NCBI GenBank assembly: GCA_032622095.1
Contig: CP136063.1
Span: forward strand, 80,455,980-80,519,979
Direction of reading: 5' to 3'
Length of the DNA: 64,000 bases
DNA from: Siphonodentalium dalli
Taxonomy: Eukaryota > Mollusca > Scaphopoda > Gadilida > Siphonodentaliidae
This document shows, in pieces, positions 1 through 33,443 of the stretch. Position 1 is the first letter of the stretch. Each line of letters starts with the position of its first letter. The position numbers and the translations under genes are program-made. The notes beneath the pieces were generated by a model, which was not told where the DNA came from, made no database searches, and saw only the letters and a list, made by a program, of their open reading frames with translations.

Positions 1-801
1 CTCAAGGACACCACGCACGCATAACCCACGAACATATCAGGCATGTCATTGTGGTCAACACATCATCCCTATTTACAATTTAACCCCACGCAGCTGGATT
101 TCTAGAGCACGAGGTCAGCACGGGTCCCGACATATTCGTCGTGATTTCATATAAATTGGCATTTCTACCTAATTTCGAGGTACCAGGACACTCTACAGAG
201 ATATCCCTCCACATTAGTTGATGCATATGTGTAGAGAGTGTGACCGCTGGTAGTGGAAAACCACCCCACGCAGTTGAAATTTGGTAAAAACAGGTCATCA
301 CGGACTTCAATACGTCTATGTACAAACCGAACATTATCGCTAGTATGGCCCGGTTTTAGGGCTCCAGGACACCACACACGCATAACCCACGAACATAACA
401 GGCATGTCATTGTGGTCAACACATCATCCCTATTTACAATTTAACCCCACGCAGCTGGATTTCTAGAGCACGAGGTCAGCACGGGTCCCGACATATTCGT
501 CGTGATTTAATATAAATTGGCATTTCTACCTAATTTCGAGGTACCAGGACACTCTACAGAGATATCCCTCCACATTAGTTGATGCATATGTGTAGAGAGT
601 GTGACCGCTGGTAGTGGAAAACCACCCCACGCAGTTGAAATTTGGTAAAAACAGGTCATCACGGACTTCAATACGTCTATGTACAAACCGAACATTATCG
701 CTAGTATGGCCCGTTTTTAGGGCTCCAGGACACCACACACGCATAACCCACGAACATAACAGGCATGTCATTGTGGTCAACACATCATCCCTATTTACTA
801 T

Positions 802-2608
802 TTAACCCCACGCAGCTGGATTTCTAGAGCACGAGGTCAGCACGGGTCCCGACATATTCGTCGTGATTTCATATAAATTGGCATTTCTACCTAATTTCGA
901 GGTACCAGGACACTCTACAGAGATAACCCTCCACATTAGTTGATTCATATGTGTAGACAGTGTGACCGCTGGTAGTGTAAAGCCGCCCCACGCAGTTGAA
1001 ATTTGGTAAAAACAGGTCATCACGGACTTCAATACGTCTATGTACAAACCGAACATTATCGCTATTATGGCCCGTTTTTAGGGCTCCAGGACACCACACA
1101 CGCATAACCCACGAACATATCAGGCATGTCATTGTGGTCAACACATCATCCCTATTTACAATTTAACCCCACGCAGCTGGATTTCTAGAGCACGAGGTCA
1201 GCACGGGTCCCGACATATTGGTCGTGATTTCATATAAATTGGCATTTCTACCTAATTTCGAGGTACCAGGACACTCTACAGAGATAACCCTCCACATTAG
1301 TTGATTCATATGTGTAGACAGTGTTACCGCTGGTAGTGTAAAGCCGCCCCACGCAGTTGAAATTTGGTAAAAACAGGTCATCACGGACTTCAATACGTCT
1401 ATGTACAAACCGAACATTATCGCTAGTATGGCCCGTTTTTAGGGCTCCAGGACACCACACACGCATAACCCACGAACATAACAGGCATGTCATTGTGGTC
1501 AACACATCATCCCTATTTACAATTTAACCCCAAGCAGCTGGATTTCTAGAACACGAGGTCAGCACGGGTCCCGACATATTCGTCGTGATTTCATATAAAT
1601 TGGCATTTCTACCTAATTTCGAGGTACCAGGACACTCTACAGAGATAACCCTCCACATTAGTTGATTCATATGTGTAGACAGTGTGACCGCTGGTAGTGT
1701 AAAGCCGCCCCACGCAGTTGAAATTTGGTAAAAACAGGTCATCACGGACTTCAATACGTCTATGTACAAACCGAACATTATCGCTATTATGGCCCGTTTT
1801 TAGGGCTCCAGGACACCACACACGCATAACCCACGAACATATCAGGCATGTCATTGTGGTCAACACATCATCCCTATTTACAATTTAACCCCACGCAGCT
1901 GGATTTCTAGAGCACGAGGTCAGCACGGGTCCCGACATATTCGTCGTGATTTCATATAAATTGGCATTTCTACCTAATTTCGAGGTACCAGGACACTCTA
2001 CAGAGATAACCCTCCACATTAGTTGATTCATATGTGTAGACAGTGTGACCGCTGGTAGTGTAAAGCCGCCCCACGCAGTTGAAATTTGGTAAAAACAGGT
2101 CATCACGGACTTCAATACGTCTATGTACAAACCGAACATTATCGCTATATTATGGCCCGTTTTTAGGGCTCCAGGACACCACACACGCATAACCCACGAA
2201 CATATCAGGCATGTCATTGTGGTCAACACATCATCCCTATTTACAATTTAACCCCACGCAGCTGGATTTCTAGAGCACGAGGTCAGCACGGGTCCCGACA
2301 TATTCGTCGTGATTTCATATAAATTGGCATTTCTACCTAATTTCGAGGTACCAGGACACTCTACAGAGATATCCCTCCACATTAGTTGATGCATATGTGT
2401 AGAGAGTGTGACCGCTGGTAGTGGAAAACCACCCCACGCAGTTGAAATTTGGTAAAAACAGGTCATCACGGACTTCAATACGTCTATGTACAAACCGAAC
2501 ATTATCGCTAGTATGGCCCGTTTTTAGGGCTCCAGGACACCACACACGCATAACCCACGAACATAACAGGCATGTCATTGTGGTCAACACATCATCCCTA
2601 TTTACAAT
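802..2608 (+). repeat. Five-monomer higher-order repeat, intact copy
   Basis: Five monomers in the order Bb-Ba-Bb-Bb'-Aa occupy 1807 bp. The second (Ba) carries the diagnostic ATTGGTCGTG instead of ATTCGTCGTG, and the fourth (Bb') has the 2-bp insertion in its second half. The same order and diagnostic changes recur at 17219-19025 with the identical length. A two-monomer remnant (Bb'-Aa) follows at 2609-3332. Confidence 0.85.
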
Positions 2609-3332
2609 TTAACCCCACGCAGCTGGATTTCTAGAGCACGAGGTCAGCACGGGTCCCGACATATTCGTCGTGATTTCATATAAATTGGCATTTCTACCTA
2701 ATTTCGAGGTACCAGGACACTCTACAGAGATAACCCTCCACATTAGTTGATTCATATGTGTAGACAGTGTGACCGCTGGTAGTGTAAAGCCGCCCCACGC
2801 AGTTGAAATTTGGTAAAAACAGGTCATCACGGACTTCAATACGTCTATGTACAAACCGAACATTATCGCTATATTATGGCCCGTTTTTAGGGCTCCAGGA
2901 CACCACACACGCATAACCCACGAACATATCAGGCATGTCATTGTGGTCAACACATCATCCCTATTTACAATTTAACCCCACGCAGCTGGATTTCTAGAGC
3001 ACGAGGTCAGCACGGGTCCCGACATATTCGTCGTGATTTCATATAAATTGGCATTTCTACCTAATTTCGAGGTACCAGGACACTCTACAGAGATATCCCT
3101 CCACATTAGTTGATGCATATGTGTAGAGAGTGTGACCGCTGGTAGTGGAAAACCACCCCACGCAGTTGAAATTTGGTAAAAACAGGTCATCACGGACTTC
3201 AATACGTCTATGTACAAACCGAACATTATCGCTAGTATGGCCCGTTTTTAGGGCTCCAGGACACCACACACGCATAACCCACGAACATAACAGGCATGTC
3301 ATTGTGGTCAACACATCATCCCTATTTACAAT

Positions 3333-5669
3333 TTAACCCCACGCAGCTGGATTTCTAGAGCACGAGGTCAGCACGGGTCCCGACATATTCGTCGTGATTT
3401 CATATAAATTGGCATTTCTACCTAATTTCGAGGTACCATGACACTCTACAGAGATAACCCTCCACATTAGTTGATTCATATGTGTAGACAGTGTGACCGC
3501 TGGTAGTGTAAAGCCGCCCCACGCAGTTGAAATTTGGTAAAAACAGGTCATCACGGACTTCAATACGTCTATGTACAAACCGAACATTATCGCTATTATG
3601 GCCCGTTTTTAGGGCTCCAGGACACCACACTGCACGCATAACCCACGAACATATCAGGTATGTCATTGTGGTCAACACATCATCCCTATTTACAATTTAA
3701 CCCCACGCAGCTGGATTTCTAGAGCACGAGGTCAGCACGGGTCCCGACATATTGGTCGTGATTTCATATAAATTGGCATTTCTACCTAATTTCGAGGTAC
3801 CAGGACACTCTACAGAGATAACCCTCCACATTAGTTGATTCATATGTGTAGACAGTGTGACCGCTGGTAGTGTAAAGCCGCCCCACGCAGTTGAAATTTG
3901 GTAAAAACAGGTCATCACGGACTTCAATACGTCTATGTACAAACCGAACATTATCGCTAGTATGGCCCGTTTTTAGGGCTCCAGGACACCACACACGCAT
4001 AACCCACGAACATAACAGGCATGTCATTGTGGTCAACACATCATCCCTATTTACAATTTAACCCCACGCAGCTGGATTTCTAGAGCACGAGGTCAGCACG
4101 GGTCCCGACATATTCGTCGTGATTTCATATAAATTGGCATTTCTACCTAATTTCGAGGTACCAGGACACTCTACAGAGATAACCCTCCACATTAGTTGAT
4201 TCATATGTGTAGACAGTGTGACCGCTGGTAGTGTAAAGCCGCCCCACGCAGTTGAAATTTGGTAAAAACAGGTCATCACGGACTTCAATACGTCTATGTA
4301 CAAACCGAACATTATCGCTATTATGGCCCGTTTTAGGGCTCCAGGACACCACACACGCATAACCCACGAACATATCAGGCATGTCATTGTGGTCAACACA
4401 TCATCCCTATTTACAATTTAACCCCACGCAGCTGGATTTCTAGAGCACGAGGTCAGCACGGGTCCCGACATATTCGTCGTGATTTCATATAAATTGGCAT
4501 TTCTACCTAATTTCGAGGTACCAGGACACTCTACAGAGATAACCCTCCACATTAGTTGATTCATATGTGTAGACAGTGTGACCGCTGGTAGTGTAAAGCC
4601 GCCCCACGCAGTTGAAATTTGGTAAAAACAGGTCATCACGGACTTCAATACGTCTATGTACAAACCGAACATTATCGCTATATTATGGCCCGTTTTTAGG
4701 GCTCCAGGACCACCTAGTACAAACGCTATCGCATGCCAAATGGGGTGGGATGCTGAAAAATCGCAAGCCAATTTGCGCGCGATTTAGTTTGCCGTGTCCC
4801 GCGTGACTCAGCATCGCATGCGAATATGTTTCGATTGTAAAATTCAAAGAAATGTAACTCTAACATACCCGTTATTTAGTAAAAAATCATACCAAAAGAA
4901 TGACACCACAAAGAGACACGTTTCAAAAACACTATAGGAAAAATCACTTTTAGGGTGGGTGGGCTTGGGGGAGGCGGACGGCACTGTCTAAGACCTGTTG
5001 CCCCTTTTTCAAATTGATATCGAGGCAGTCAGGTCGCGCCAGCGACCGCTGCCGCGGGGGCCTGATGGCTCATAAAAACAACTCTATATATAAGCGCCCG
5101 CGGCTACCACTTTATAGCATCAAGGGTAGACTGAGCAAATCGAGACGGGATGCTGGTCCCGCCAAACTCTCCAGACGGCATCGACATATCAAAACGCATG
5201 CGATTCTCGCCTATCGTATCCGTATTTGGACGAGATTGTAAGACCATAGCCTGCCAGGACACCACACACGCATAACCCACGAACATATCAGGCATGTCAT
5301 TGTGGTCAACACATCATCCCTATTTACAATTTAACCCCACGCAGCTGGATTTCTAGAGCACGAGGTCAGCACGGGTCCCGACATATTCGTCGTGATTTCA
5401 TATAAATTGGCATTTCTACCTCTACAGAGATATCCCTCCACATTAGTTGATGCATATGTGTAGAGAGTGTGACCGCTGGTAGTGGAAAACCACCCCACGC
5501 AGTTGAAATTTGGTAAAAACAGGTCATCACGGACTTCAATACGTCTATGTACAAACCGAACATTATCGCTAGTATGGCCCGTTTTTAGGGCTCCAGGACA
5601 CCACACACGCATAACCCACGAACATAACAGGCATGTCATTGTGGTCAACACATCATCCCTATTTACAAT
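3333..5669 (+). repeat. Higher-order repeat copy with 543-bp insertion and 22-bp deletion
   Basis: Order Bb-Ba-Bb-Bb'-Aa again, starting at 3333, 3697, 4058, 4418 and 5331. The Bb' monomer is split by the 543-bp element at 4711-5253. The Aa monomer lacks 22 bp around 5420, where 'TTTCTACCT' runs directly into 'CTACAGAGATATCC'. Confidence 0.8.
4711..5253. mobile_element. 543-bp insertion in satellite, copy 1, flanked by CCAGGAC
   Basis: This sequence is unrelated to the satellite and splits a monomer at CCAGGAC. That 7-mer occurs once in an intact monomer but here sits on both sides (4704-4710 and 5254-5260), as expected of a target-site duplication. No convincing terminal inverted repeat is seen; the ends begin CACCTAG and, reverse-complemented, CAGGCTA. 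It contains a G-rich stretch (4953-4980), a TATA-like CTATATATAAG near 5084, a small hairpin (CGGGA/TCCCG) near 5150 and three GCATGCG/GCATGCC-type motifs. The open frame at 5014-5241 has no recognisable domain. The family is unknown; a SINE-like or non-autonomous DNA element is possible. Confidence 0.7.
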
Positions 5670-8027
5670 TTAACCCCACGCAGCTGGATTTCTAGAGCAC
5701 GAGGTCAGCACGGGTCCCGACATATTCGTCGTGATTTCATATAAATTGGCATTTCTACCTAATTTCGAGGTACCAGGACACTCTACAGAGATAACCCTCC
5801 ACATTAGTTGATTCATATGTGTAGACAGTGTGACCGCTGGTAGTGTAAAGCCGCCCCACGCAGTTGAAATTTGGTAAAAACAGGTCATCACGGACTTCAA
5901 TACGTCTATGTACAAACCGAACATTATCGCTATTATGGCCCGTTTTAGGGCTCCAGGACACCACACACGCATAACCCACGAACATATCAGGTATGTCATT
6001 GTGGTCAACACATCATCCCTATTTACAATTTAACCCCACGCAGCTGGATTTCTAGAGCACGAGGTCAGCACGGGTCCCGACATATTGGTCGTGATTTCAT
6101 ATAAATTGGCATTTCTACCTAATTTCGAGGTACCAGGACACTCTACAGAGATAACCCTCCACATTAGTTGATTCATATGTGTAGACAGTGTGACCGCTGG
6201 TAGTGTAAAGCCGCCCCACGCAGTTGAAATTTGGTAAAAACAGGTCATCACGGACTTCAATACGTCTATATGTACAAACCGAACATTATCGCTAGTATGG
6301 CCCGTTTTTAGGGCTCCAGGACACCACACACGCATAACCCACGAACATAACAGGCATGTCATTGTGGTCAACACATCATCCCTATTTACAATTTAACCCC
6401 ACGCAGCTGGATTTCTAGAGCACGAGGTCAGCACGGGTCCCGACATATTCGTCGTGATTTCATATAAATTGGCATTTCTACCTAATTTCGAGGTACCAGG
6501 ACACTCTACAGAGATAACCCTCCACATTAGTTGATTCATATGTGTAGACAGTGTGACCGCTGGTAGTGTAAAGACGCCCCACGCAGTTGAAATTTGGTAA
6601 AAACAGGTCATCACGGACTTCAATACGTCTATGTACAAACCGAACATTATCGCTATTATGGCCCGTTTTTAGGGCTCCAGGACACCACACACGCATAACC
6701 CACGAACATATCAGGCATGTCATTGTGGTCAACACATCATCCCTATTTACAATTTAACCCCACGCAGCTGGATTTCTAGAGCACGAGGTCAGCACGGGTC
6801 CCGACATATTCGTCGTGATTTCATATAAATTGGCATTTCTACCTAATTTCGAGGTACCAGGACACTCTACAGAGATAACCCTCCACATTAGTTGATTCAT
6901 ATGTGTAGAGAGTGTGACCGCTGGTAGTGTAAAGCCGCCCCACGCAGTTGAAATTTGGTAAAAACAGGTCATCACGGACTTCAATACGTCTATGTACAAA
7001 CCGAACATTATCGCTATATTATGGCCCGTTTTTAGGGCTCCAGGACCACCTAGTACAAACGCTATCGCATGCCAAATGGGGTGGGATGCTGAAAAATCGC
7101 AAGCCAATTTGCGCGCGATTTAGTTTGCCGTGTCCCGCGTGACTCAGCATCGCATGCGAATATGTTTCGATTGTAAAATTCAAAGAAATGTAACTCTAAC
7201 ATACCCGTTATTTAGTAAAAAATCATACCAAAAGAATGACACCACAAAGAGACACGTTTCAAAAACACTATAGGAAAAATCACTTTTAGGGTGGGTGGGC
7301 TTGGGGGAGGCGGACGGCACTGTCTAAGACCTGTTGCCCCTTTTTCAAATTGATATCGAGGCAGTCAGGTCGCGCCAGCGACCGCTGCCGCGGGGGCCTG
7401 ATGGCTCATAAAAACAACTCTATATATAAGCGCCCGCGGCTACCACTTTATAGCATCAAGGGTAGACTGAGCAAATCGAGACGGGATGCTGGTCCCGCCA
7501 AACTCTCCAGACGGCATCGACATATCAAAACGCATGCGATTCTCGCCTATCGTATCCGTATTTGGACGAGATTGTAAGACCATAGCCTGCCAGGACACCA
7601 CACACGCATAACCCACGAACATATCAGGCATGTCATTGTGGTCAACACATCATCCCTATTTACAATTTAACCCCACGCAGCTGGATTTCTAGAGCACGAG
7701 GTCAGCACGGGTCCCGACATATTCGTCGTGATTTCATATAAATTGGCATTTCTACCTAATTTCGAGGTACCAGGACACTCTACAGAGATATCCCTCCACA
7801 TTAGTTGATGCATATGTGTAGAGAGTGTGACCGCTGGTAGTGGAAAACCACCCCACGCAGTTGAAATTTGGTAAAAACAGGTCATCACGGACTTCAATAC
7901 GTCTATGTACAAACCGAACATTATCGCTAGTATGGCCCGTTTTTAGGGCTCCAGGACACCACACACGCATAACCCACGAACATAACAGGCATGTCATTGT
8001 GGTCAACACATCATCCCTATTTACAAT
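5670..8027 (+). repeat. Higher-order repeat copy carrying the 543-bp insertion
   Basis: Order Bb-Ba-Bb-Bb'-Aa at 5670, 6030, 6393, 6754 and 7667. The private changes CAGGTATGTC, GTCTATATGTAC and AAAGACGCCCC are shared with the following copy at 8028. This shows local duplication of blocks rather than independent assembly of the monomers. Confidence 0.8.
7047..7589. mobile_element. 543-bp insertion in satellite, copy 2
   Basis: This is the second copy of the element at 4711. It has the same length, the same insertion point in a Bb' monomer and the same flanking CCAGGAC (7040-7046, 7590-7596). It lies 2336 bp downstream of the first copy and looks identical when read by eye. Identical position and flank mean it arrived by segmental duplication of the satellite block, not by a second insertion. 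Confidence 0.75.
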
Positions 8028-9623
8028 TTAACCCCACGCAGCTGGATTTCTAGAGCACGAGGTCAGCACGGGTCCCGACATATTCGTCGTGATTTCATAT
8101 AAATTGGCATTTCTACCTAATTTCGAGGTACCAGGACACTCTACAGAGATAACCCTCCACATTAGTTGATTCATATGTGTAGACAGTGTGACCGCTGGTA
8201 GTGTAAAGCCGCCCCACGCAGTTGAAATTTGGTAAAAACAGGTCATCACGGACTTCAATACGTCTATGTACAAACCGAACATTATCGCTATTATGGCCCG
8301 TTTTAGGGCTCCAGGACACCACACACGCATAACCCACGAACATATCAGGTATGTCATTGTGGTCAACACATCATCCCTATTTACAATTTAACCCCACGCA
8401 GCTGGATTTCTAGAGCACGAGGTCAGCACGGGTCCCGACATATTGGTCGTGATTTCATATAAATTGGCATTTCTACCTAATTTCGAGGTACCAGGACACT
8501 CTACAGAGATAACCCTCCACATTAGTTGATTCATATGTGTAGACAGTGTGACCGCTGGTAGTGTAAAGCCGCCCCACGCAGTTGAAATTTGGTAAAAACA
8601 GGTCATCACGGACTTCAATACGTCTATATGTACAAACCGAACATTATCGCTAGTATGGCCCGTTTTTAGGGCTCCAGGACACCACACACGCATAACCCAC
8701 GAACATAACAGGCATGTCATTGTGGTCAACACATCATCCCTATTTACAATTTAACCCCACGCAGCTGGATTTCTAGAGCACGAGGTCAGCACGGGTCCCG
8801 ACATATTCGTCGTGATTTCATATAAATTGGCATTTCTACCTAATTTCGAGGTACCAGGACACTCTACAGAGATAACCCTCCACATTAGTTGATTCATATG
8901 TGTAGACAGTGTGACCGCTGGTAGTGTAAAGACGCCCCACGCAGTTGAAATTTGGTAAAAACAGGTCATCACGGACTTCAATACGTCTATGTACAAACCG
9001 AACATTATCGCTATTATGGCCCGTTTTTAGGGCTCCAGGACACCACACACGCATAACCCACGAACATATCAGGCATGTCATTGTGGTCAACACATCATCC
9101 CTATTTACAATTTAACCCCACGCAGCTGGATTTCTAGAGCACGAGGTCAGCACGGGTCCCGACATATTCGTCGTGATTTCATATAAATTGGCATTTCTAC
9201 CTAATTTCGAGGTACCAGGACACTCTACAGAGATAACCCTCCACATTAGTTGATTCATATGTGTAGAGAGTGTGACCGCTGGTAGTGTAAAGCCGCCCCA
9301 CGCAGTTGAAATTTGGTAAAAACAGGTCATCACGGACTTCAATACGTCTATGTACAAACCGAACATTATCGCTATATTATGGCCCGTTTTTAGGGCTCCA
9401 GGACACCACACACGCATAACCCACGAACATATCAGGCATGTCATTGTGGTCAACACATCATCCCTATTTACAATTTAACCCCACGCAGCTGGATTTCTAG
9501 AGCACGAGGTCAGCACGGGTCCCGACATATTCGTCGTGATTTCATATAAATTGGCATTTCTACCTAATTTCGAGGTACCAGGACACTCTACAGAGATATC
9601 CCTCCACATTAGTTGATGCATAT

Positions 9624-10241
9624 AATAATAATATAGAGTATTTGTATAGCGCCATATCCCGTATGGCTCATGGCGCTGAACAATTCACACAAACGCAGTC
9701 ACACACATTCACACTATAACATATACGCAATAAATAATATGCATGTATTTCAATAATTAAGTCTCCTCAACGTTTTCTGATGTTATTTGTCCGAAATGGG
9801 AGATGAATAGGTGAGTTTTTAGGGCCGATTTGAATGTTTCCAAACAGTCAGACTGTTTCACCTCTTTGGGAAGGTTGTTCCAAATGGTCGGCCCGTAGAC
9901 CTCGAAAGAACGGCGACCAAAGTACATCAGATCTCGTTTAGGTACAACCATCGCATTCGCATCCTGTGATCGAAGTGGTCGAGCAGGTACATATTTGACC
10001 AACAATGTATCAATATATGGTGGCAAAGCATTATCAATATCCGACTTTCTATAACACAAAGTAGCATGTTTGTACACAATTCGTTCAAATATGGGAAGCC
10101 AATGTAATTTATACAACAGTGGGGTAACATGATCAAATTTGCCTGCACGGCACACAATTTTTGCAGCAATATTAACAATTTTTTTGAAGTTTGTGAAGTT
10201 GATAATCTGGGAGTCCTGCTAAAATAGAATTACAGTAATCG
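9624..10241 (-). mobile_element. 5'-truncated L2/CR1-like LINE fragment, copy 1
   Basis: About 618 bp inserted in a satellite monomer between GATGCATAT and TGTAGAGAGTG. Read on the minus strand it encodes the C-terminal end of a non-LTR reverse transcriptase. A short 3' UTR follows with a GCGCCAT/ATGGCGC hairpin and then an A/T-only TTATTATTA-type tail. That hairpin plus tail resembles the 3' ends of L2-type elements. There is no 5' region, as is usual for truncated LINE insertions. No clear target-site duplication is seen. Confidence 0.85.
9757..10239 (-). pseudogene. Reverse transcriptase C-terminal fragment (L2/CR1-like), frameshifted
   Basis: The C-terminal ~130 residues of a non-LTR retrotransposon polyprotein, just after the reverse transcriptase fingers/palm. 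The family-typical order is visible: 'FDHVTPLLYKLHWLPIFERI', then 'PARPLRSQDA', then 'FGRRSFEVYGPTIWNNLPKE' and 'FKSALKTHLF' near the stop. Relative to the sister copy at 15800 this copy has one extra T in the run at 10179-10185 (seven instead of six). That breaks the frame upstream of 'CRAGKFDH'. The catalytic YADD part of the enzyme is absent because of 5' truncation, so it cannot be active. Confidence 0.85.
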
Positions 10242-11180
10242 ATGTGTAGAGAGTGTGACCGCTGGTAGTGGAAAACCACCCCACGCAGTTGAAATTTGGT
10301 AAAAACAGGTCATCACGGACTTCAATACGTCTATGTATACAAACCGAACATTATCGCTAGTATGGCCCGTTTTTAGGGCTCCAGGACACCACACACGCAT
10401 AACCCACGAACATAACAGGCATGTCATTGTGGTCAACACATCATCCCTATTTACAATTTAACCCCACGCAGCTGGATTTCTAGAGCACGAGGTCAGCACG
10501 GGTCCCGACATATTGGTCGTGATTTCATATAAATTGGCATTTCTACCTAATTTCGAGGTACCAGGACACTCTACAGAGATAACCCTCCACATTAGTTGAT
10601 GCATATGTGTAGAGAGTGTGACCGCTGGTAGTGGAAAACCACCCCACGCAGTTGAAATTTGGTAAAAACAGGTCATCACGGACTTCAATACGTCTATGTA
10701 CAAACCGAACATTATCGCTAGTATGGCCCGTTTTTAGGGCTCCAGGACACCACACACGCATAACCCACGAACATAACAGGCATGTCATTGTGGTCAACAC
10801 ATCATCCCTATTTACAATTTAACCCCACGCAGCTGGATTTCTAGAGCACGAGGTCAGCACGGGTCCCGACATATTCGTCGTGATTTAATATAAATTGGCA
10901 TTTCTACCTAATTTCGAGGTACCAGGACACTCTACAGAGATATCCTCCAAATTAGTTGATGCATATGTGTAGAGAGTGTGACCGATGGTAGTGGAAAACC
11001 ACCCCACGCAGTTGAAATTTGGTAAAAACAGGTCATCACGGACTTCAATACGTCTATGTACAAACCGAACATTATCGCTATAGTATGGCCCGTTTTTAGG
11101 GCTCCAGGACACCACATACGCATAACCCACGAACATAACAGGCATGTCATTGTGGTCAACACATCATCCCTATTTACAAT

Positions 11181-12987
11181 TTAACCCCACGCAGCTGGAT
11201 TTCTAGAGCACGAGGTCAGCACGGGTCCCGACATATTCGTCGTGATTTCATATAAATTGGCATTTCTACCTAATTTCGAGGTACCAGGACACTCTACAGA
11301 GATAACCCTCCACATTAGTTGATTCATATGTGTAGACAGTGTGACCGCTGGTAGTGTAAAGCCGCCCCACGCAGTTGAAATTTGGTAAAAACAGGTCATC
11401 ACGGACTTCAATACGTCTATGTACAAACCGAACATTATCGCTATTATGGCCCGTTTTTAGGGCTCCAGGACACCACACACGCATAACCCACGAACATATC
11501 AGGCATGTCATTGTGGTCAACACATCATCCCTATTTACAATTTAACCCCACGCAGCTGGATTTCTAGAGCACGAGGTCAGCACGGGTCCCGACATATTGG
11601 TCGTGATTTCATATAAATTGGCATTTCTACCTAATTTCGAGGTACCAGGACACTCTACAGAGATAACCCTCCACATTAGTTGATTCATATGTGTAGACAG
11701 TGTGACCGCTGGTAGTGTAAAGCCGCCCCACGCAGTTGAAATTTGGTAAAAACAGGTCATCACGGACTTCAATACGTCTATGTACAAACCGAACATTATC
11801 GCTATTATGGCCCGTTTTTAGGGCTCCAGGACACCACACACGCATAACCCACGAACATATCAGGCATGTCATTGTGGTCAACACATCATCCCTATTTACA
11901 ATTTAACCCCACGCAGCTGGATTTCTAGAGCACGAGGTCAGCACGGGTCCCGACATATTGGTCGTGATTTCATATAAATTGGCATTTCTACCTAATTTCG
12001 AGGTACCAGGACACTCTACAGAGATAACCCTCCACATTAGTTGATTCATATGTGTAGACAGTGTGACCGCTGGTAGTGTAAAGCCGCCCCACGCAGTTGA
12101 AATTTGGTAAAAACAGGTCATCACGGACTTCAATACGTCTATGTACAAACCGAACATTATCGCTAGTATGGCCCGTTTTTAGGGCTCCAGGACACCACAC
12201 ACGCATAACCCACGAACATAACAGGCATGTCATTGTGGTCAACACATCATCCCTATTTACAATTTAACCCCACGCAGCTGGATTTCTAGAGCACGAGGTC
12301 AGCACGGGTCCCGACATATTCGTCGTGATTTCATATAAATTGGCATTTCTACCTAATTTCGAGGTACCAGGACACTCTACAGAGATAACCCTCCACATTA
12401 GTTGATTCATATGTGTAGACAGTGTGACCGCTGGTAGTGTAAAGCCGCCCCACGCAGTTGAAATTTGGTAAAAACAGGTCATCACGGACTTCAATACGTC
12501 TATGTACAAACCGAACATTATCGCTATTATGGCCCGTTTTTAGGGCTCCAGGACACCACACACGCATAACCCACGAACATATCAGGCATGTCATTGTGGT
12601 CAACACATCATCCCTATTTACAATTTAACTCCACGCAGCTGGATTTCTAGAGCACGAGGTCAGCACGGGTCCCGACATATTCGTCGTGATTTCATATAAA
12701 TTGGCATTTCTACCTAATTTCGAGGTACCAGGACACTCTACAGAGATAACCCTCCACATTAGTTGATTCATATGTGTAGAGAGTGTGACCGCTGGTAGTG
12801 TAAAGCCGCCCCACGCAGTTGAAATTTGGTAAAAACAGGTCATCACGGACTTCAATACGTCTATGTACAAACCGAACATTATCGCTATATTATGGCCCGT
12901 TTTTAGGGCTCCAGGACACCACACACGCATAACCCACGAACATATCAGGCATGTCATTGTGGTCAACACATCATCCCTATTTACAAT
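11181..12987 (+). repeat. Rearranged higher-order repeat copy
   Basis: Five monomers in the order Bb-Bb-Ba-Bb-Bb', lacking the terminal Aa monomer and with an extra Bb carrying ATTGGTCGTG at 11542. The Bb' monomer at 12625 begins AACTCCACGCAG instead of AACCCCACGCAG. The monomer at 18302 shares this private change, so the blocks around 12.6 kb and 18.3 kb are duplicates that differ by one monomer. Confidence 0.7.
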
Positions 12988-14069
12988 TTAACCCCACGCA
13001 GCTGGATTTCTAGAGCACGAGGTCAGCACGGGTCCCGACATATTCGTCGTGATTTCATATAAATTGGCATTTCTACCTAATTTCGAGGTACCAGGACACT
13101 CTACAGAGATAACCCTCCACATTAGTTGATTCATATGTGTAGACAGTGTGACCGCTGGTAGTGTAAAGCCGCCCCACGCAGTTGAAATTTGGTAAAAACA
13201 GGTCATCACGGACTTCAATACGTCTATGTACAAACCGAACATTATCGCTAGTATGGCCCGTTTTTAGGGCTCCAGGACACCACAAACGCATAACCCACGA
13301 ACATAACAGGCATGTCATTGTGGTCAACACATCATCCCTATTTACAATTTAACCCCACGCAGCTGTATTTCTAGAGCACGAGGTCAGCACGGGTCCCGAC
13401 ATATTCGTCGTGATTTCATATAAATTGGCATTTCTACCTAATTTCGAGGTACCAGGACACTCTACAGAGATAACCCTCCACATTAGTTGATTCATATGTG
13501 TAGACAGTGTGACCGCTGGTAGTGTAAAGCCGCCCCACGCAGTTGAAATTTGGTAAAAACAGGTCATCACGGACTTCAATACGTCTATGTACAAACCGAA
13601 CATTATCGCTATTATGGCCCGTTTTAGGGCTCCAGGACACCACACACGCATAACCCACGAACATATCAGGCATGTCATTGTGGTCAACACATCATCCCTA
13701 TTTACAATTTAACCCCACGCAGCTGGATTTCTAGAGCACGAGGTCAGCACGGGTCCCGACATATTCGTCGTGATTTCATATAAATTGGCATTTCTACCTA
13801 ATTTCGAGGTACCAGGACACTCTACAGAGATAACCCTCCACATTAGTTGATTCATATGTGTAGACAGTGTGACCGCTGGTAGTGTAAAGCCGCCCCACGC
13901 AGTTGAAATTTGGTAAAAACAGGTCATCACGGACTTCAATACGTCTATGTACAAACCGAACATTATCGCTAGTATGGCCCGTTTTTAGGGCTCCAGGACA
14001 CCACACACGCATAACCCACGAACATAACAGGCATGTCATTGTGGTCAACACATCATCCCTATTTACAAT
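12988..14069 (+). repeat. Three satellite monomers between higher-order repeat copies
   Basis: Monomers Ba, Bb and Ba starting at 12988, 13349 and 13709 do not complete a pentamer. The 13349 unit has CTGTATTTC in place of CTGGATTTC and the shortened GTTTTAGGG also seen at 4058, 5670 and 8028. Confidence 0.7.
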
Positions 14070-15666
14070 TTAACCCCACGCAGCTGGATTTCTAGAGCAC
14101 GAGGTCAGCACGGGTCCCGACATATTCGTCGTGATTTCATATAAATTGGCATTTCTACCTAATTTCGAGGTACCAGGACACTCTACAGAGATAACCCTCC
14201 ACATTAGTTGATTCATATGTGTAGACAGTGTGACCGCTGGTAGTGTAAAGCCGCCCCACGCAGTTGAAATTTGGTAAAAACAGGTCATCACGGACTTCAA
14301 TACGTCTATGTACAAACCGAACATTATCGCTATTATGGCCCGTTTTTAGGGCTCCAGGACACCACACACGCATAACCCACGAACATATCAGGTATGTCAT
14401 TGTGGTCAACACATCATCCCTATTTACAATTTAACCCCACGCAGCTGGATTTCTAGAGCACGAGGTCAGCACGGGTCCCGACATATTGGTCGTGATTTCA
14501 TATAAATTGGCATTTCTACCTAATTTCGAGGTACCAGGACACTCTACAGAGATAACCCTCCACATTAGTTGATTCATATGTGTAGACAGTGTGACCGCTG
14601 GTAGTGTAAAGCCGCCCCACGCAGTTGAAATTTGGTAAAAACAGGTCATCACGGACTTCAATACGTCTATATGTACAAACCGAACATTATCGCTAGTATG
14701 GCCCGTTTTTAGGGCTCCAGGACACCACACACGCATAACCCACGAACATAACAGGCATGTCATTGTGGTCAACACATCATCCCTATTTACAATTTAACCC
14801 CACGCAGCTGGATTTCTAGAGCACGAGGTCAGCACGGGTCCCGACATATTCGTCGTGATTTCATATAAATTGGCATTTCTACCTAATTTCGAGGTACCAG
14901 GACACTCTACAGAGATAACCCTCCACATTAGTTGATTCATATGTGTAGACAGTGTGACCGCTGGTAGTGTAAAGCCGCCCCACGCAGTTGAAATTTGGTA
15001 AAAACAGGTCATCACGGACTTCAATACGTCTATGTACAAACCGAACATTATCGCTATTATGGCCCGTTTTTAGGGCTCCAGGACACCACACACGCATAAC
15101 CCACGAACATATCAGGCATGTCATTGTGGTCAACACATCATCCCTATTTACAATTTAACCCCACGCAGCTGGATTTCTAGAGCACGAGGTCAGCACGGGT
15201 CCCGACATATTCGTCGTGATTTCATATAAATTGGCATTTCTACCTAATTTCGAGGTACCAGGACACTCTACAGAGATAACCCTCCACATTAGTTGATTCA
15301 TATGTGTAGAGAGTGTGACCGCTGGTAGTGTAAAGCCGCCCCACGCAGTTGAAATTTGGTAAAAACAGGTCATCACCGACTTCAATACGTCTATGTACAA
15401 ACCGAACATTATCGCTATATTATGGCCCGTTTTTAGGGCTCCAGGACACCACACACGCATAACCCACGAACATATCAGGCATGTCATTGTGGTCAACACA
15501 TCATCCCTATTTACAATTTAACCCCACGCAGCTGGATTTCTAGAGCACGAGGTCAGCACGGGTCCCGACATATTCGTCGTGATTTCATATAAATTGGCAT
15601 TTCTACCTAATTTCGAGGTACCAGGACACTCTACAGAGATATCCCTCCACATTAGTTGATGCATAT

Positions 15667-16283
15667 AATAATAATATAGAGTATTTGTATAGCGCCATAT
15701 CCCGTATGGCTCATGGCGCTGAACAATTCACACAAACGCAGTCACACACATTCACACTATAACATATACGCAATAAATAATATGCATGTATTTCAATAAT
15801 TAAGTCTCCTCAACGTTTTCTGATGTTATTTGTCCGAAATGGGAGATGAATAGGTGAGTTTTTAGGGCCGATTTGAATGTTTCCAAACAGTCAGACTGTT
15901 TCACCTCTTTGGGAAGGTTGTTCCAAATGGTCGGCCCGTAGACCTCGAAAGAACGGCGACCAAAGTACATCAGATCTCGTTTAGGTACAACCATCGCATT
16001 CGCATCCTGTGATCGAAGTGGTCGAGCAGGTACATATTTGACCAACAATGTATCAATATATGGTGGCAAAGCATTATCAATATCCGACTTTCTATAACAC
16101 AAAGTAGCATGTTTGTACACAATTCGTTCAAATATGGGAAGCCAATGTAATTTATACAACAGTGGGGTAACATGATCAAATTTGCCTGCACGGCACACAA
16201 TTTTTGCAGCAATATTAACAATTTTTTGAAGTTTGTGAAGTTGATAATCTGGGAGTCCTGCTAAAATAGAATTACAGTAATCG
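15667..16283 (-). mobile_element. 5'-truncated L2/CR1-like LINE fragment, copy 2
   Basis: The second copy of the fragment at 9624, at the same point of an A-type monomer and 6043 bp further on. It carries the same 3' UTR hairpin and TTATTATTA-type tail. It differs from copy 1 by a six-T rather than seven-T run (16222-16227). It was carried here by duplication of the surrounding satellite block. Confidence 0.85.
15800..16281 (-). pseudogene. Reverse transcriptase C-terminal fragment (L2/CR1-like)
   Basis: The same protein fragment as at 9757, here with the frame open for about 160 residues from 'IDYCNSILAGLPDYQLHKLQ' to the stop at 15800. The open frame continues upstream into satellite DNA, which is read-through and not part of the element. 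The fragment covers only the post-catalytic C-terminal region typical of L2/CR1/Jockey-group polyproteins, so it is a dead 5'-truncated copy even though it is unbroken. It probably shows the ancestral frame. Confidence 0.85.
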
Positions 16284-17218
16284 ATGTGTAGAGAGTGTGA
16301 CCGCTGGTAGTGGAAAACCACCCCACGCAGTTGAAATTTGGTAAAAACAGGTCATCACGGACTTCAATACGTCTATGTACAAACCGAACATTATCGCTAG
16401 TATGGCCCGTTTTTAGGGCTCCAGGACACCACACACGCATAACCCACGAACATAACAGGCATGTCATTGTGGTCAACACATCATCCCTATTTACAATTTA
16501 ACCCCACGCAGCTGGATTTCTAGAGCACGAGGTCAGCACGGGTCCCGACATATTGGTCGTGATTTCATATAAATTGGCATTTCTACCTAATTTCGAGGTA
16601 CCAGGACACTCTACAGAGATAACCCTCCACATTAGTTGATGCATATGTGTAGAGAGTGTGACCGCTGGTAGTGGAAAACCACCCCACGCAGTTGAAATTT
16701 GGTAAAAACAGGTCATCACGGACTTCAATACGTCTATGTACAAACCGAACATTATCGCTAGTATGGCCCGTTTTTAGGGCTCCAGGACACCACACACGCA
16801 TAACCCACGAACATAACAGGCATGTCATTGTGGTCAACACATCATCCCTATTTACAATTTAACCCCACGCAGCTGGATTTCTAGAGCACGAGGTCAGCAC
16901 GGGTCCCGACATATTCGTCGTGATTTAATATAAATTGGCATTTCTACCTAATTTCGAGGTACCAGGACACTCTACAGAGATATCCTCCAAATTAGTTGAT
17001 GCATATGTGTAGAGAGTGTGACCGATGGTAGTGGAAAACCACCCCACGCAGTTGAAATTTGGTAAAAACAGGTCATCACGGACTTCAATACGTCTATGTA
17101 CAAACCGAACATTATCGCTAGTATGGCCCGTTTTTAGGGCTCCAGGACACCACATACGCATAACCCACGAACATAACAGGCATGTCATTGTGGTCAACAC
17201 ATCATCCCTATTTACAAT

Positions 17219-19025
17219 TTAACCCCACGCAGCTGGATTTCTAGAGCACGAGGTCAGCACGGGTCCCGACATATTCGTCGTGATTTCATATAAATTGGCA
17301 TTTCTACCTAATTTCGAGGTACCAGGACACTCTACAGAGATAACCCTCCACATTAGTTGATTCATATGTGTAGACAGTGTGACCGCTGGTAGTGTAAAGC
17401 CGCCCCACGCAGTTGAAATTTGGTAAAAACAGGTCATCACGGACTTCAATACGTCTATGTACAAACCGAACATTATCGCTATTATGGCCCGTTTTTAGGG
17501 CTCCAGGACACCACACACGCATAACCCACGAACATATCAGGCATGTCATTGTGGTCAACACATCATCCCTATTTACAATTTAACCCCACGCAGCTGGATT
17601 TCTAGAGCACGAGGTCAGCACGGGTCCCGACATATTGGTCGTGATTTCATATAAATTGGCATTTCTACCTAATTTCGAGGTACCAGGACACTCTACAGAG
17701 ATAACCCTCCACATTAGTTGATTCATATGTGTAGACAGTGTGACCGCTGGTAGTGTAAAGCCGCCCCACGCAGTTGAAATTTGGTAAAAACAGGTCATCA
17801 CGGACTTCAATACGTCTATGTACAAACCGAACATTATCGCTAGTATGGCCCGTTTTTAGGGCTCCAGGACACCACACACGCATAACCCACGAACATAACA
17901 GGCATGTCATTGTGGTCAACACATCATCCCTATTTACAATTTAACCCCACGCAGCTGGATTTCTAGAGCACGAGGTCAGCACGGGTCCCGACATATTCGT
18001 CGTGATTTCATATAAATTGGCATTTCTACCTAATTTCGAGGTACCAGGACACTCTACAGAGATAACCCTCCACATTAGTTGATTCATATGTGTAGACAGT
18101 GTGACCGCTGGTAGTGTAAAGCCGCCCCACGCAGTTGAAATTTGGTAAAAACAGGTCATCACGGACTTCAATACGTCTATGTACAAACCGAACATTATCG
18201 CTATTATGGCCCGTTTTTAGGGCTCCAGTACACCACACACGCATAACCCACGAACATATCAGGCATGTCATTGTGGTAAACACATCATCCCTATTTACAA
18301 TTTAACTCCACGCAGCTGGATTTCTAGAGCACGAGGTCAGCACGGGTCCCGACATATTCGTCGTGATTTCATATAAATTGGCATTTCTACCTAATTTCGA
18401 GGTACCAGGACACTCTACAGAGATAACCCTCCACATTAGTTGATTCATATGTGTAGAGAGTGTGACCGCTGGTAGTGTAAAGCCGCCCCACGCAGTTGAA
18501 ATTTGGTAAAAACAGGTCATCACGGACTTCAATACGTCTATGTACAAACCGAACATTATCGCTATATTATGGCCCGTTTTTAGGGCTCCAGGACACCACA
18601 CACGCATAACCCACGAACATATCAGGCATGTCATTGTGGTCAACACATCATCCCTATTTACAATTTAACCCCACGCAGCTGGATTTCTAGAGCACGAGGT
18701 CAGCACGGGTCCCGACATATTCGTCGTGATTTCATATAAATTGGCATTTCTACCTAATTTCGAGGTACCAGGACACTCTACAGAGATATCCCTCCACATT
18801 AGTTGATGCATATGTGTAGAGAGTGTGACCGCTGGTAGTGGAAAACCACCCCACGCAGTTGAAATTTGGTAAAAACAGGTCATCACGGACTTCAATACGT
18901 CTATGTACAAACCGAAAATTATCGCTTGTATGGCCCGTTTTTAGGGCTCCAGGACACCACACACGCATAACCCACGAACATATCAGGCATGTCATTGTGG
19001 TCAACACATCATCCCTATTTACAAT
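17219..19025 (+). repeat. Five-monomer higher-order repeat, intact copy
   Basis: Order Bb-Ba-Bb-Bb'-Aa at 17219, 17580, 17941, 18302 and 18665, total 1807 bp. It matches 802-2608 in length, order and diagnostic changes. The Aa member has GCTTGTATGG and ACATATC, a slight mixture of second-half forms. Confidence 0.85.
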
Positions 19026-19403
19026 TTAACCCCACGCAGCTGGATTTCTAGAGCACGAGGTCAGCACGGGTCCCGACATATTGGTCGTGATTTCATATAA
19101 ATTGGCATTTCTACCTAATTTCGAGGTACCAGGACACTCTACAGAGATAACCCTCCACATTAGTTGATTCATATGTGTAGAGAGTGTGACCGCTGGTAGT
19201 GTAAAGCCGCCCCACGCAGTTGAAATTTGGTAAAAACAGGTCATCACGGACTTCAATACGTCTATGTACAAACCGAACATTATCGCTATTATGGCCCGTT
19301 TTTAGGGCTCCAGGACACCACACACGCATAACCCACGAACATATCAGGCATGTCATTGTGGTCAACACATCATCCCTATTTACAATTTAACCCCACGCAG
19401 CTG

Positions 19404-19515
19404 AGGAATTAGTAAGATGTGACTAAGGTAACACTTAGTTACTTTTGGCTAAGTTAGTCAAAAATAACTAAGTTACGGGTTGACTAAGGCTATGACTAAG
19501 TTTTTTTTTTCAGTG
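19404..19515. repeat. 112-bp TTAGTCA-rich replacement inside a monomer
   Basis: The monomer at 19388 stops after CCCCACGCAGCTG and resumes at AGGACACCACAC near its own end. About 270 bp of satellite are thus replaced by 112 bp of unrelated sequence. The inserted DNA is built from CTAAG/CTTAG and TTAGTCA/TGACTAA words. It contains an imperfect hairpin in which CACTTAGTTACTTTTG faces CAAAAATAACTAAGTTA, and it ends in a T11 run followed by CAGTG. No target duplication is seen. This may be a recombination scar or a remnant of a small hairpin element. Confidence 0.65.
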
Positions 19516-20515
19516 AGGACACCACACACGCATAACCCACGAACATATCAGGCATGTCATTGTGGTCAACACATCATCCCTATTTACAATTTAACCCCAC
19601 GCAGCTGGATTTCTAGAGCACGAGGTCAGCACGGGTCCCGACATATTCGTCGTCATTTCATATAAATTGGCATTTCTACCTAATTTCGAGGTACAAGGAC
19701 ACTCTACAGAGATAACCCTCCACATTAGTTGATTCATATGTGTAGACAGTGTGACCGCTGGTAGTGTAAAGCCGCCCCACGCAGTTGAAATTTGGTAAAA
19801 ACAGGTCATCACGGACTTCAATACGTCTATGTACAAACCGAACATTATCGCTATTATGGCCCGTTTTTAGGGCTCCATGACACCACACACGCATAACCCA
19901 CGAACATATCAGGTATGTCATTGTGGTCAACACATCAGCCCTAATTACAATTTAACCCCAAGCAGCTGGATTTCTAGAGCAGGAGGTCAGCACGGGTCCG
20001 GACATATTCGTCGTGATTTCATATAGATTGGCATTTCTACCTAATTTCGAGGTACCAGGACACTCTACAGACATATCCCTCCACATTGGTTGATGCATAT
20101 GTGTAGAGAGTGTGACCGCTGGTAGTGGAAAACCACCCACGCAGTTGAAATTTGGCAAAAGCAGGTCATCACGGACTTCAATACTTCTATGTACAAACCG
20201 AACATGATCGCTATTATGGCCCGTATTTAGGGCTCCAGGACACCACACACGCATAACCCGCGAACATAACAGGCATGTCATTGTGGTCAACACATCAGCC
20301 CTATTTACAATTTAACCCCACGCAGCTGGATTTCTAGAGCACGAGGTCAGCACGGGTCTGGACATATTCGTCGTGATTTCATATAAATTGGCATTTCTAC
20401 CTAATTTCGAGGTACCAGGACACTCTACAGAGATAACCCTCCACATTAGTTGATTCATATGTGTAGACAGTGTGACCGCTGGTAGTGTAAAGCCGCCCCA
20501 CGCAGTTGAAATTTC

Positions 20516-21587
20516 TTATTAACTCGAGATGAGTACTAATAACTGCCGTAATATGCTCTGGATGTGTACTCCAAATCTATTCAAACAGACAAGGATGGAT
20601 AACTCTAAAATCAAGTGGTAATTTTAACGCAATTTTGACTGAGTTCTGGGCCAGATAGTATTCCCGATAATGAAAAATAATATATTTCTAAAATCGATAT
20701 CTAACAAATCTGAGCTTTGATGGGTGACTTCCTCAACTCGAATAAAATATTTTTGACCCGCGAAGACATTGAAATAGTAGTTGAGAGGAGTTTTATCGGA
20801 TTGAGTACCTTTAATGTACCGGTATAATTATGATTCTAAGTGAATGTGAGAATCCAATCACTAAAGAAAGGATCTGAAATGTTGCATTTTTTTTTAATTT
20901 TTGCAGCATTTTGTTATATCTGCCCCTTATTATTTATACTGATTATATCATTGATATAAAAGTATCAAGAGAATCCACAGAGATGCCATTGCTAATGGTA
21001 TATATATAGGTGGTGATCCCCATTTAAAAATTGGTCGACCGGTGTCCCTCAATAAAAAATATAAAGTATGGCTAATAACTTCAATTACCATAGTTATTTC
21101 AAATTGACAACATCGCTGATTTCTAAGCACTATTTGTTATTAAAATTTCGCGCTTATTCTACTGTATTTAATAAGTAAACTGTAGAATTCTGGTCTGTCA
21201 GGACAGCAACCAAACAAGAACGTTGTGAAAATGTTTTCATTATATGTTTCATTGAATGTTAAAATTATGACTTGGACATAATACCAAGTTTCAATCTGAA
21301 TATTTCCACCAGATCATTCGATATGGTGTCCGTTACTTTTGCACTGTGTTAACAAATTATCTACGAATACTCTGTATATGTTAATATGGCATCACAACAG
21401 AACTTCACGGCCTATAATATAATTATCGGCTTAAAATGTAAATTTGTAAAGAATCCGGACGGAACACATTCCATTTATAGTGGTCTAATTTATTTATTGC
21501 TGAGTATCATTCAGCTCAATAATTGGGACAGATTAGTGGCGACAGACATCTTATGCGTATAAAATATAAAAATTACAGTCCTATTTG
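20516..21587. other. Non-coding spacer, left part
   Basis: AT-rich sequence between the two satellite arrays with no credible gene. Open frames here are short and lack recognisable domains. No satellite-like sequence is recognised in this part. Confidence 0.6.
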
Positions 21588-21745
21588 AGGGGGGGGGGGG
21601 GTCCAATCCCAGATTCCCAGGAAATAAATCAGCAAATCCCAGTTCCCAGGAAAAAAATATGCCATTTCCCAGCTCCCAGGAATTAAAAGCAAATCCCAGT
21701 TCCCAGTAAAAAAAAGCCAGTTCCCAGGAATTAAAATATTACATA
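21588..21745. repeat. Decayed minisatellite of CCCAGNTCCCAGGAA units
   Basis: After a run of G (about 21589-21601), units of roughly 25-35 bp built on 'TCCCAGTTCCCAGGAA' followed by A-rich spacers repeat about five times. The units are a transition-decayed form of the CCCGGGTCCCGGAA array at 22010-22165. Read on the minus strand they give a short repetitive frame with a recurring Gly-Asn-Trp-Asp, which is not taken to be a protein. Confidence 0.7.
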
Positions 21746-22009
21746 GAGTATCGACAAAACATACAATATTCACAAGTAATGTAGATCAATGTAGCCTACA
21801 TATATTGTATTTTTATGCTATATTTTGATTTGTTGGCTACTGTCTGGTCAATTACATCATTTTACATGACATAAAATGCGAACCTATATGCAAATCCATT
21901 GAACAGAATCAACAGATCACTCTTTACACTGATCTACACCACTGCAAACCAGGTATTCCCTAAATGTCCAGGTGATGTATGCAAATTCATGTGGTGAATA
22001 AAAATGGAA

Positions 22010-22165
22010 ATCCCGATTAATTGGGGATAATTTCCCGGGTCCCGGAAAATAATTTCAACCTTTCCCGGGTCCCGGTGGAATTCTGTTCCCGATTCCCGGA
22101 AAATTAAATCTGACGATCCCAATTCCCGAAAAATAAAAAGGGTCGATCCCGGTGTCCCGAAAATA
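22010..22165. repeat. Minisatellite of TCCCGGGTCCCGGAAAAT units
   Basis: Five to six degenerate units of about 28-32 bp with the core TCCCGGGTCCCGGAAAATAA. They match the 21.6-21.7 kb array except that CCGG is kept where the other has CCAG. Confidence 0.7.
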
Positions 22166-22497
22166 CCCGCCCCTCCTATCGTTGGGTCGATTTCTTCTAA
22201 TAAGATACTACAATGCACATGGAAAACCATCTAAACAGATTGTGCAACACAATGAATTTATGTCAAAGCGTCAATGTAGGCTATATGGAATATCGACGTT
22301 TATAAATATCGATCTTCTTGTGGACTTCGTTCGAATGAATTCCGGCAGCTTGGGATAAATTTATAATGGACATCAGTGTGATGGCCACTGTGTCATACAT
22401 ATTATATTGTAATTTACGACCCTGCCTAACTATGCTTAAAAGCCATGTCCTGATTGGCCAGTGGCCCGAGTTACCATGGCTATATCGTTCCAGTTTT

Positions 22498-22530
22498 GTG
22501 GTACAATTCTACTTTTTCCAATTGTACCAC
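22498..22530. repeat. Short hairpin
   Basis: GTGGTACAATT (22498-22508) is followed 11 bases later by AATTGTACCAC (22520-22530), with further pairing of TTTT and AAAA outside. It is isolated, with no adjacent gene. Confidence 0.5.
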
Positions 22531-22637
22531 GAAAACAATCGGTTTATTCAGATCGCCGCACGCGACTTTTCCCGTCTTTTCTAACTCCGCACAAACGGGG
22601 CATCGATGGAGTACACCCGCACCCGTAACATAAGATA

Positions 22638-33428: not shown

Positions 33429-33443
33429 AGGAACAATATATAA

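What the first reader, a model, noticed from the sequence alone, without database searches (positions are those of the whole stretch)
802..19025. Pentameric higher-order repeat (Bb-Ba-Bb-Bb'-Aa, ~1.8 kb) in array 1
Monomer variants do not occur at random. The order Bb, Ba (with ATTGGTCGTG), Bb, Bb' (2-bp insertion), Aa is seen at 802, 3333, 5670, 8028, 14070 and 17219, and in rearranged form at 11181. Two copies have exactly the same length (1807 bp). Multi-monomer higher-order repeats are the signature of homogenised satellite such as primate alpha satellite and are rarely described in invertebrates. If this is mollusc DNA it is a candidate centromeric or heterochromatic array.
Basis: partly seen in the sequence, partly recalled or inferred. 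Interest (0 to 1): 0.85.

Follow-up and report, generated by a model that had tools for sequence, protein, structure and literature searches.

The report
Giant foldback transposon with satellite arms
The repeating "satellite" is one arm of a very large, hairpin-shaped jumping element with copies on all nine large contigs of this genome, so the repeat pattern reflects recent copying inside a mobile element rather than a centromere.

Summary
It is not a regular pentamer array. Copies start 13, 7, 5, 5, 15 and 7 monomers apart, only three are head to tail, and lag-5 identity is not significant (p = 0.07). Young block duplications explain it; they also copied two inserts, and the junction of one was found nowhere else in the genome.
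The centromere reading fails. The array is the left arm (31.9 kb, beginning 11.4 kb before the window) of a 47.6-kb foldback-type transposon: terminal inverted repeat of about 440 bp, satellite, 3.1-kb spacer, inverted satellite, inverted terminus. Tips pair into 40 elements on all nine contigs. Eleven were read in full; ten have two inverted arms. Spacers are mostly 98-100% identical, but arms differ in length and order. Of 79 tips checked, 71 abut a near-pure (TA)n tract. No transposase was found, so the family is probably non-autonomous; Mutator-like mobilisation is plausible but unproven. Closest known: Tetris of Drosophila virilis and the TA-targeting MuTAnT and TAFT elements of plants. 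The longest arm, about 35 kb, is some 20 times the longest Tetris TIR.

The parts
1..20514 (+). Left satellite arm, part inside the window (361-bp monomers; the arm starts 11,363 bp upstream, at C3:80444617)
802..2608 (+). pentamer block copy (1807 bp)
3333..5669 (+). pentamer block copy, carrying the 543-bp insert
5670..8027 (+). pentamer block copy, carrying the 543-bp insert; head to tail with its neighbours
8028..9621 (+). pentamer block copy, fifth monomer interrupted by the retroelement insert
14070..15664 (+). pentamer block copy, fifth monomer interrupted by the second copy of the retroelement insert
17219..19025 (+). pentamer block copy (1807 bp)
4711..5253 (.). 543-bp insert, CCAGGAC on both sides; identical to the copy at 7047-7589
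7047..7589 (.). 543-bp insert, second copy
9622..10241 (-). 3' fragment of a non-LTR retroelement (CR1-like by recall, no Pfam match for its frame); ORF 9757-10218
   Evidence: its junction word occurs only twice in the genome
15665..16283 (-). second copy of that fragment, 619 of 620 aligned columns identical
19403..19515 (.). small insert in the left arm
20515..23609 (+). spacer between the arms; 32 places on nine contigs including this one, 26 of them covering bases 1-2561 at 98-100%; longest ORF 98 aa
23610..30842 (-). Right satellite arm, inverted relative to the left arm
30843..30870 (-). inner 28 bp of the right terminal inverted repeat
30871..35355 (.). 4,485-bp nested insertion in the right terminus (ends GGCCTAAAATTCCTTA / GGCCCAAAATTCCTTA, ATAT on both sides)
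35356..35768 (-). outer part of the right terminal inverted repeat, tip at 35747-35768
35769..35810 (.). (TA)n tract at the right insertion boundary

Best explanation
The feature is the left arm of a giant, apparently non-autonomous foldback-type DNA transposon. Shown: terminal inverted repeats of about 440 bp with a fixed tip; satellite arms in opposite orientation; a shared spacer that some copies lack; 40 tip pairs on all nine contigs; tips mostly next to (TA)n tracts; and block duplications inside this arm after other elements had inserted into it. Inferred: a transposase made elsewhere recognises the termini and inserts the element into short TA tracts, which may then lengthen. The arms grow, shrink and reorder by unequal exchange or copying between the highly similar monomers, which leaves the recurring pentamer order. 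The satellite probably arose from a segment of the terminal repeat. A Mutator-like transposase is my first guess (about 0.5).
For: Spacer at 32 places on nine contigs, 26 of them over bases 1-2561 at 98-100% (only 40 of 4,873 candidates scored). 41 matches of the 412-bp terminus at 99-100% (40 of 3,000 candidates scored). Tip word: 57 + 59 matches, 0 + 0 in the reversed control. 40 tip pairs of 2.6-47.6 kb, median 22.9 kb, total 942.5 kb. Ten tip pairs chosen for lacking a spacer match were read in full: nine run terminus, satellite, inverted satellite, inverted terminus, and in these nine the arms meet within 30 bp. 20 of 20 samples from two further long elements are satellite, with one turn of orientation in each. 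TA flanks at 71 of 79 tips. A related empty site: in four repeat copies on C5 (L066-L069) the left and right flanks of one element lie 25 bp apart with a short TA tract between. Two elements lie back to back in one TA run on C1. The terminus resembles the satellite at about 70-75% over 110 bp. The retroelement junction occurs twice in the genome, both times in this arm. Precedents: PMC4079207, PMC4486113.
Against: No transposase was found: none of 135 MULE places typed of 150 listed lies in the 40 pairs, and of 9 MULE loci read none carries the tip; one (L138) holds a (TA)8 run on one side only. The target-site duplication cannot be read inside TA tracts. The pairing of 29 of the 40 elements rests on tip orientation and distance (and, for 25 pairs, a spacer match between the tips), not on reading them whole; one trio of tips on C6 may be paired wrongly. 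One of the ten elements read (C6:73.45 Mb) has only one short arm. Two elements with matching arm lengths (C8:42750353, C9:48615142) are not collinear at equal offsets, so transposition of a finished long arm is not shown. Only 1 of 4 elements tested has its two arms in register (C9). Long-terminus copies match the window's terminus at only 87-97%, so not all copies are young. Arm lengths rest on an assembly whose reads I cannot see.
Confidence: 0.85

Rival explanations
1. Centromeric or heterochromatic satellite with a pentameric higher-order repeat, homogenised as in alpha satellite.
For: 361-bp tandem monomers with a recurring order; three head-to-tail pentamers at 3333-9621.
Against: Scattered arrays on all nine contigs, next to one terminus sequence and paired in opposite orientation where read; no significant five-monomer period; pentamer seen in 0 of 14 other arms or part-arms; about 1 Mb in 2.23 Gb (2,943 words).
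Confidence: 0.04
2. Satellite dispersed by extrachromosomal circles or segmental duplication, with the termini as passengers.
For: Arms vary freely in length and order; local exact block duplications.
Against: Fixed tip at 116 sites in two orientations, different flanking DNA outside the tips read, (TA)n boundary at 71 of 79 tips, and a related empty site.
Confidence: 0.06
3. Helentron/Helitron-type carrier of central tandem repeats, as the Cg_HINE elements of Pacific oyster.
For: Satellite carried by a dispersed non-autonomous element (abstract of PMC7492417).
Against: Two inverted arms and long terminal inverted repeats rather than one array between unlike ends (Helitron end structure is recalled).
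Confidence: 0.03
4. Assembly artefact: palindromes and block repeats made by mis-joining.
For: Long near-identical repeats are hard to assemble; exact 5-kb repeat at lag 4701.
Against: The best arm-to-arm alignments of eight spacerless elements are 94.6-97.6%, not 100%; nine of ten loci read show the same two-armed plan with different flanks.
Confidence: 0.02

Closest known systems
Tetris (Drosophila virilis foldback transposon, PMC4079207; abstract, section 10 and part 1 of 2 of section 16 read)
   Same: Non-autonomous; long terminal inverted repeats with an outer domain and a variable tandem-repeat domain, spacer between; a stretch of the tandem repeat resembles the outer domain; no transposase found.
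   Different: Tetris repeat is about 220 bp, TIR up to 1,735 bp, three structurally complete copies, readable 8-10 bp duplications. Here the monomer is 361 bp, arms reach about 35 kb between two tips, 40 tip pairs, targets are mostly (TA)n, some copies have no spacer.
MuTAnT (Medicago; PMC4486113, part 1 of 4 read) and TAFT/SaTar Mutator-like elements (PMC5907723; abstract and section 19 read)
   Same: Insertion in TA microsatellites; MuTAnT has a foldback structure; for maize TAFT, PMC5907723 reports empty sites with short TA tracts that expand after insertion; SaTar elements form end-to-end arrays in microsatellites, like the two elements here on C1.
   Different: Plant elements of a few hundred bp to a few kb, no satellite arms described in what I read; the MuTAnT terminus differs (search mask GGGGTTTGCTAGAACA in that paper) and it has a putative autonomous partner.
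Galileo (P superfamily foldback, Drosophila; from section 16 of PMC4079207 and recall)
   Same: Foldback with internal tandem repeats in its termini, which hold extra transposase-binding sites.
   Different: P-superfamily transposase; no satellite-scale arms known to me; not compared by sequence here.
Cg_HINE Helentrons of Crassostrea gigas (PMC7492417; abstract read)
   Same: Mobile element that disperses satellite-like repeats in an invertebrate genome.
   Different: Central repeats in a Helentron; inverted arms are not mentioned in the abstract.

Membership tests
Foldback (TIR-type) transposon | Long inverted repeats reaching both tips | tested here: met
   inverted termini at 11 of 11 elements read in full (window element and ten tip pairs), two inverted arms in 10 of 11
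Foldback (TIR-type) transposon | Tandem repeats inside the inverted repeats | tested here: met
   361-bp satellite in both arms of 10 of 11 elements
Foldback (TIR-type) transposon | Dispersed copies with different flanking DNA | tested here: met
   40 pairs on nine contigs; flanks of the tips printed differ
Foldback (TIR-type) transposon | Target-site duplication | tested here: inconclusive
   hidden in (TA)n tracts
Mutator-like (MULE) | MULE transposase encoded, or termini shared with an autonomous MULE | tested here: inconclusive
   0 of 135 typed (of 150 listed) PF10551 places in 40 pairs; 0 of 9 loci carry the tip; an unread partner remains possible
Mutator-like (MULE) | 8-11 bp target duplication | tested here: inconclusive
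   not readable in TA tracts
Tetris family | Sequence homology to Tetris | not tested
   compared by published architecture only
Higher-order repeat satellite | Identity peak at a fixed five-monomer period | tested here: not met
   lag 5 p = 0.07; best of 20 lags is 7, p = 0.004 uncorrected
Centromeric satellite | CENP-A association, one major locus per chromosome | tested here: inconclusive
   scattered loci argue against; CENP-A cannot be tested here

The most novel reading that the evidence does not exclude
A class of satellite-armed giant foldback transposons that target TA microsatellites, in which the element itself generates and seeds new satellite DNA: termini and spacer stay nearly identical through recent transposition while the arms reshuffle their monomer order far faster, possibly by copying between folded arms.
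Probability: 0.4. Interest if true: 0.75.

Novelty: new variant of a known kind. Interest (0 to 1): 0.6.

Why it matters
How satellite DNA arises and spreads is an old question. Here 25 tip pairs hold a spacer match, mostly 98-100% identical to the window's (a common clock), yet have arms of about 1.5 to 35 kb (lengths from tip and spacer coordinates, inserts included), and the arms read differ in monomer order. Array turnover could therefore be measured against transposition. It also warns that higher-order-repeat-like patterns and inverted satellite pairs in raw sequence can be transposon arms, not centromeres. The listings showed no title or abstract start describing an animal foldback with arms of this size or with TA-tract targeting; the library lacks most subscription journals, so this is weak evidence of novelty.

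Tried and rejected
Rfam and tRNA scans of the window found nothing. Pfam found nothing in 6 of the 15 listed spacer ORFs or in three larger frames from other copies. Hemocyanin PF14830, tried to place the host, gave no match and its control was silent too, so the taxon stays open; a paper on a viviparid snail holds the words 'nine chromosomes' (listing only), which proves nothing here.

Twenty unpaired or doubtful tips were sampled for an autonomous partner: 15 lead into satellite or long-terminus repeat, 5 do not (L071, L080, L087, L088, L089). Four stretches were then read, covering four of those five sites and C7:42154552. None showed an evident transposase frame; these frames were judged by eye, not scanned. 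The two C8 tips in L090 look like chance matches, L091 and L093 like truncated termini. L071 was not followed.

I expected elements of equal arm length to be copies of each other; one search rejected that for the stretches tested. I expected arms to mirror each other in every element; that held for 1 of 4, although the longest alignments of several palindromes are in register.
Full report
WHAT WAS CHECKED. The order Bb-Ba-Bb-Bb'-Aa starts at anchors 20, 33, 40, 45, 50, 65 and 72. The copies at 50 and 65 have their fifth monomer cut by an insertion and are left out of the strict tally. Six starts lie in the window, one upstream. The strict count is 5 in the arm; 20,000 shuffles averaged 0.07 with a maximum of 3. 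So the order is real. It is not periodic: steps are 13, 7, 5, 5, 15 and 7 monomers, and lag-5 identity of 41 usable monomers is 98.46% against 98.23% (p = 0.07). Lag 7 is highest (p = 0.004, 20 lags tested), lag 15 next (p = 0.02). In the part upstream of the window, lags 2, 9 and 13 stand out weakly (p = 0.03, 0.03, 0.02). Exact repeats show why: 5,062 bp at lag 4,701, 2,870 bp at lag 3,257, 2,542 bp at lag 7,958, 1,627 bp at lag 2,358, and nine more down to 702 bp.

DATED DUPLICATIONS. Two foreign inserts were duplicated with the satellite. The 543-bp insert at 4711 and 7047 is identical in both copies; the retroelement fragment at 9622 and 15665 agrees in 619 of 620 aligned columns. The satellite-retroelement junction word occurs twice in the genome (2 forward, 0 reverse, up to 2 mismatches, controls 0), both times here. 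The simplest reading is that the retroelement entered this arm once and was then copied in place.

THE SURROUNDINGS CHANGE THE PICTURE. The window is C3:80455980-80519979 of a 2.227-Gb assembly in nine contigs, and the satellite occurs on all nine. Array 2 (23,610-30,842) is the same satellite inverted. The spacer between them (20,515-23,609) recurs: 32 places including this one, on all nine contigs, 26 of them over bases 1-2561 at 98-100%, five more partial or split, and one at 95%; only 40 of 4,873 candidates were scored. In both other neighbourhoods that I fetched around a spacer (C8:53.2 Mb, C9:48.6 Mb) it is flanked by satellite in opposite orientations. Outside the arms lies a terminal sequence of about 440 bp, inverted at the two ends. 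Its 412-bp part gives 41 matches at 99-100%, with 40 of 3,000 candidates scored. The tip GAGATGTACGATTCTGTTAGCC gives 57 forward and 59 reverse matches with up to one mismatch, and 0 and 0 in the reversed control. From 106 tip places I paired neighbouring forward and reverse tips less than 100 kb apart: 40 elements of 2.6-47.6 kb, median 22.9 kb, 942.5 kb in all; 25 hold a spacer match and 15 do not. The window element is the longest, 47,568 bp, including a 4,485-bp nested insertion in its right terminus; its left tip has lost 25 bp.

COMMON ARCHITECTURE. Besides the window element, ten tip pairs without a spacer match were read in full. Nine run terminus, satellite, inverted satellite, inverted terminus, and in these nine the arms meet within 30 bp, for example a 9.0-kb near-palindrome on C3; three of the nine (C1:179.78, C6:111.18 and C8:102.99 Mb) have other DNA inserted in an arm. 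The tenth (C6:73.45 Mb) has one short arm and an interrupted right terminus. Two long elements sampled at 20 points were satellite at all 20, with one turn of orientation in each. Two terminus types exist. The short type matches the window's at 98.9-100% (four of the ten). The long type, with several repeats of about 140 bp, matches at 87-97% (six of the ten), so that branch is older. The best arm-to-arm alignments of eight spacerless elements are 94.6-97.6%. Bases 88-197 of the terminus reference resemble part of the satellite monomer at about 70-75%. The two halves of the monomer align with 120 identities in 200 columns (score 20.5; the best of 100 shuffles scored 7.0, but the shuffles were not given the 73 phases tried), so an older half-unit of about 180 bp is likely.

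CONFINEMENT. A 24-base satellite word gives 1,554 + 1,389 matches with up to 2 mismatches, control 0; times 361 bp this is about 1.06 Mb, close to the 0.94 Mb of the 40 pairs. The 100 places listed, all on C1, fall inside four tip pairs (searches compared). The other 2,843 were not seen one by one.

INSERTION SITE. Of 79 tips with flanks in hand, 71 have at least 20 of 29 alternating TA steps just outside; the other eight have a shorter TA tract or a GA tract, and one (L120) shows only GA in the 60 bases printed. For one element (C3:88917112-88932081) the left flank belongs to a repeat with 20 matches. In four copies (L066-L069) the left flank is followed after 25 bp by the right flank at 91% over 195 bp, with a short TA tract between: a related empty site. 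L063-L065 match the right flank only weakly. This fits a short TA target that lengthens later, as section 19 of PMC5907723 reports for maize TAFT elements, but the exact duplication cannot be read. Two elements lie back to back in one TA run on C1.

RATES. Spacers and short-type termini are nearly identical between elements, while arms differ. Two elements with matching arm lengths (C8:42750353, C9:48615142) are not collinear at equal offsets in the two 2.5-kb stretches tested; the best match of one is 98.4% about two monomers further in, that of the other 97.4% in other places. In C9:48615142 the left and right arms keep the same order in register (98.1% over 19 monomers, the best of 13 shifts); three palindromes do not. 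My inference is that array reshuffling outpaces point mutation in the single-copy parts; unequal exchange is the simplest cause, and arm-to-arm copying may add to it.

MOBILISATION. I found no transposase in the elements read: the ten show no frame beyond satellite and terminus except a few short ones, three of which have no Pfam match, as have six spacer frames. The genome holds at least 150 scored MULE matches. Of nine MULE loci read, none carries the tip; one (L138) has a (TA)8 run on one side of the domain; one (L141) shows long termini of another sequence with an 8-bp duplication. A 17-base tip search gave 85 places; those outside known elements that I followed were degenerate, truncated or chance matches. 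Mutator-like mobilisation rests on analogy: most foldbacks seem to belong to Mutator (PMC4079207, section 16) and TA-tract targeting is known in that superfamily (PMC4486113). I put it near 0.5.

VERDICT. The pentamer is a by-product of young block duplications inside one arm of a giant foldback element. Architecture matches Tetris; scale, target and the freedom of the arms differ. I rate it a new variant of a known kind.

Noticed in passing
window 30871-35355: 4,485-bp nested insertion with ends GGCCTAAAATTCCTTA and GGCCCAAAATTCCTTA and ATAT on both sides; contains 154-bp tandem repeats (31974-32389).
   Followed up: partly
window 42678-46055 (-): Open frame of 1,125 codons with no Pfam match at E 0.01.
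   Followed up: partly
window 39247-40143 (-): TatD-type DNase frame (Pfam E 2e-52).
   Followed up: no
window 61825-63393 (+): C2H2 zinc-finger protein with many fingers.
   Followed up: no
L063-L069 (C5:180409473-180422759): The repeat that flanks one C3 element forms a local series with steps of about 1.3 and 1.5 kb.
   Followed up: no
L141 (C1:26379900-26385900): MULE with an 873-aa open frame, long termini and an 8-bp duplication; possibly a complete element.
   Followed up: no
L027 (C1:208236129-208237139): Two foldback elements inserted back to back in one TA run, about 38 bp apart.
   Followed up: partly
window 23076: The window's spacer lacks about 86 bp that other copies carry at this point.
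   Followed up: partly
C6:179641950 / 179658144 / 179689314: Two forward tips and one reverse tip in a row: a nested or truncated arrangement.
   Followed up: no
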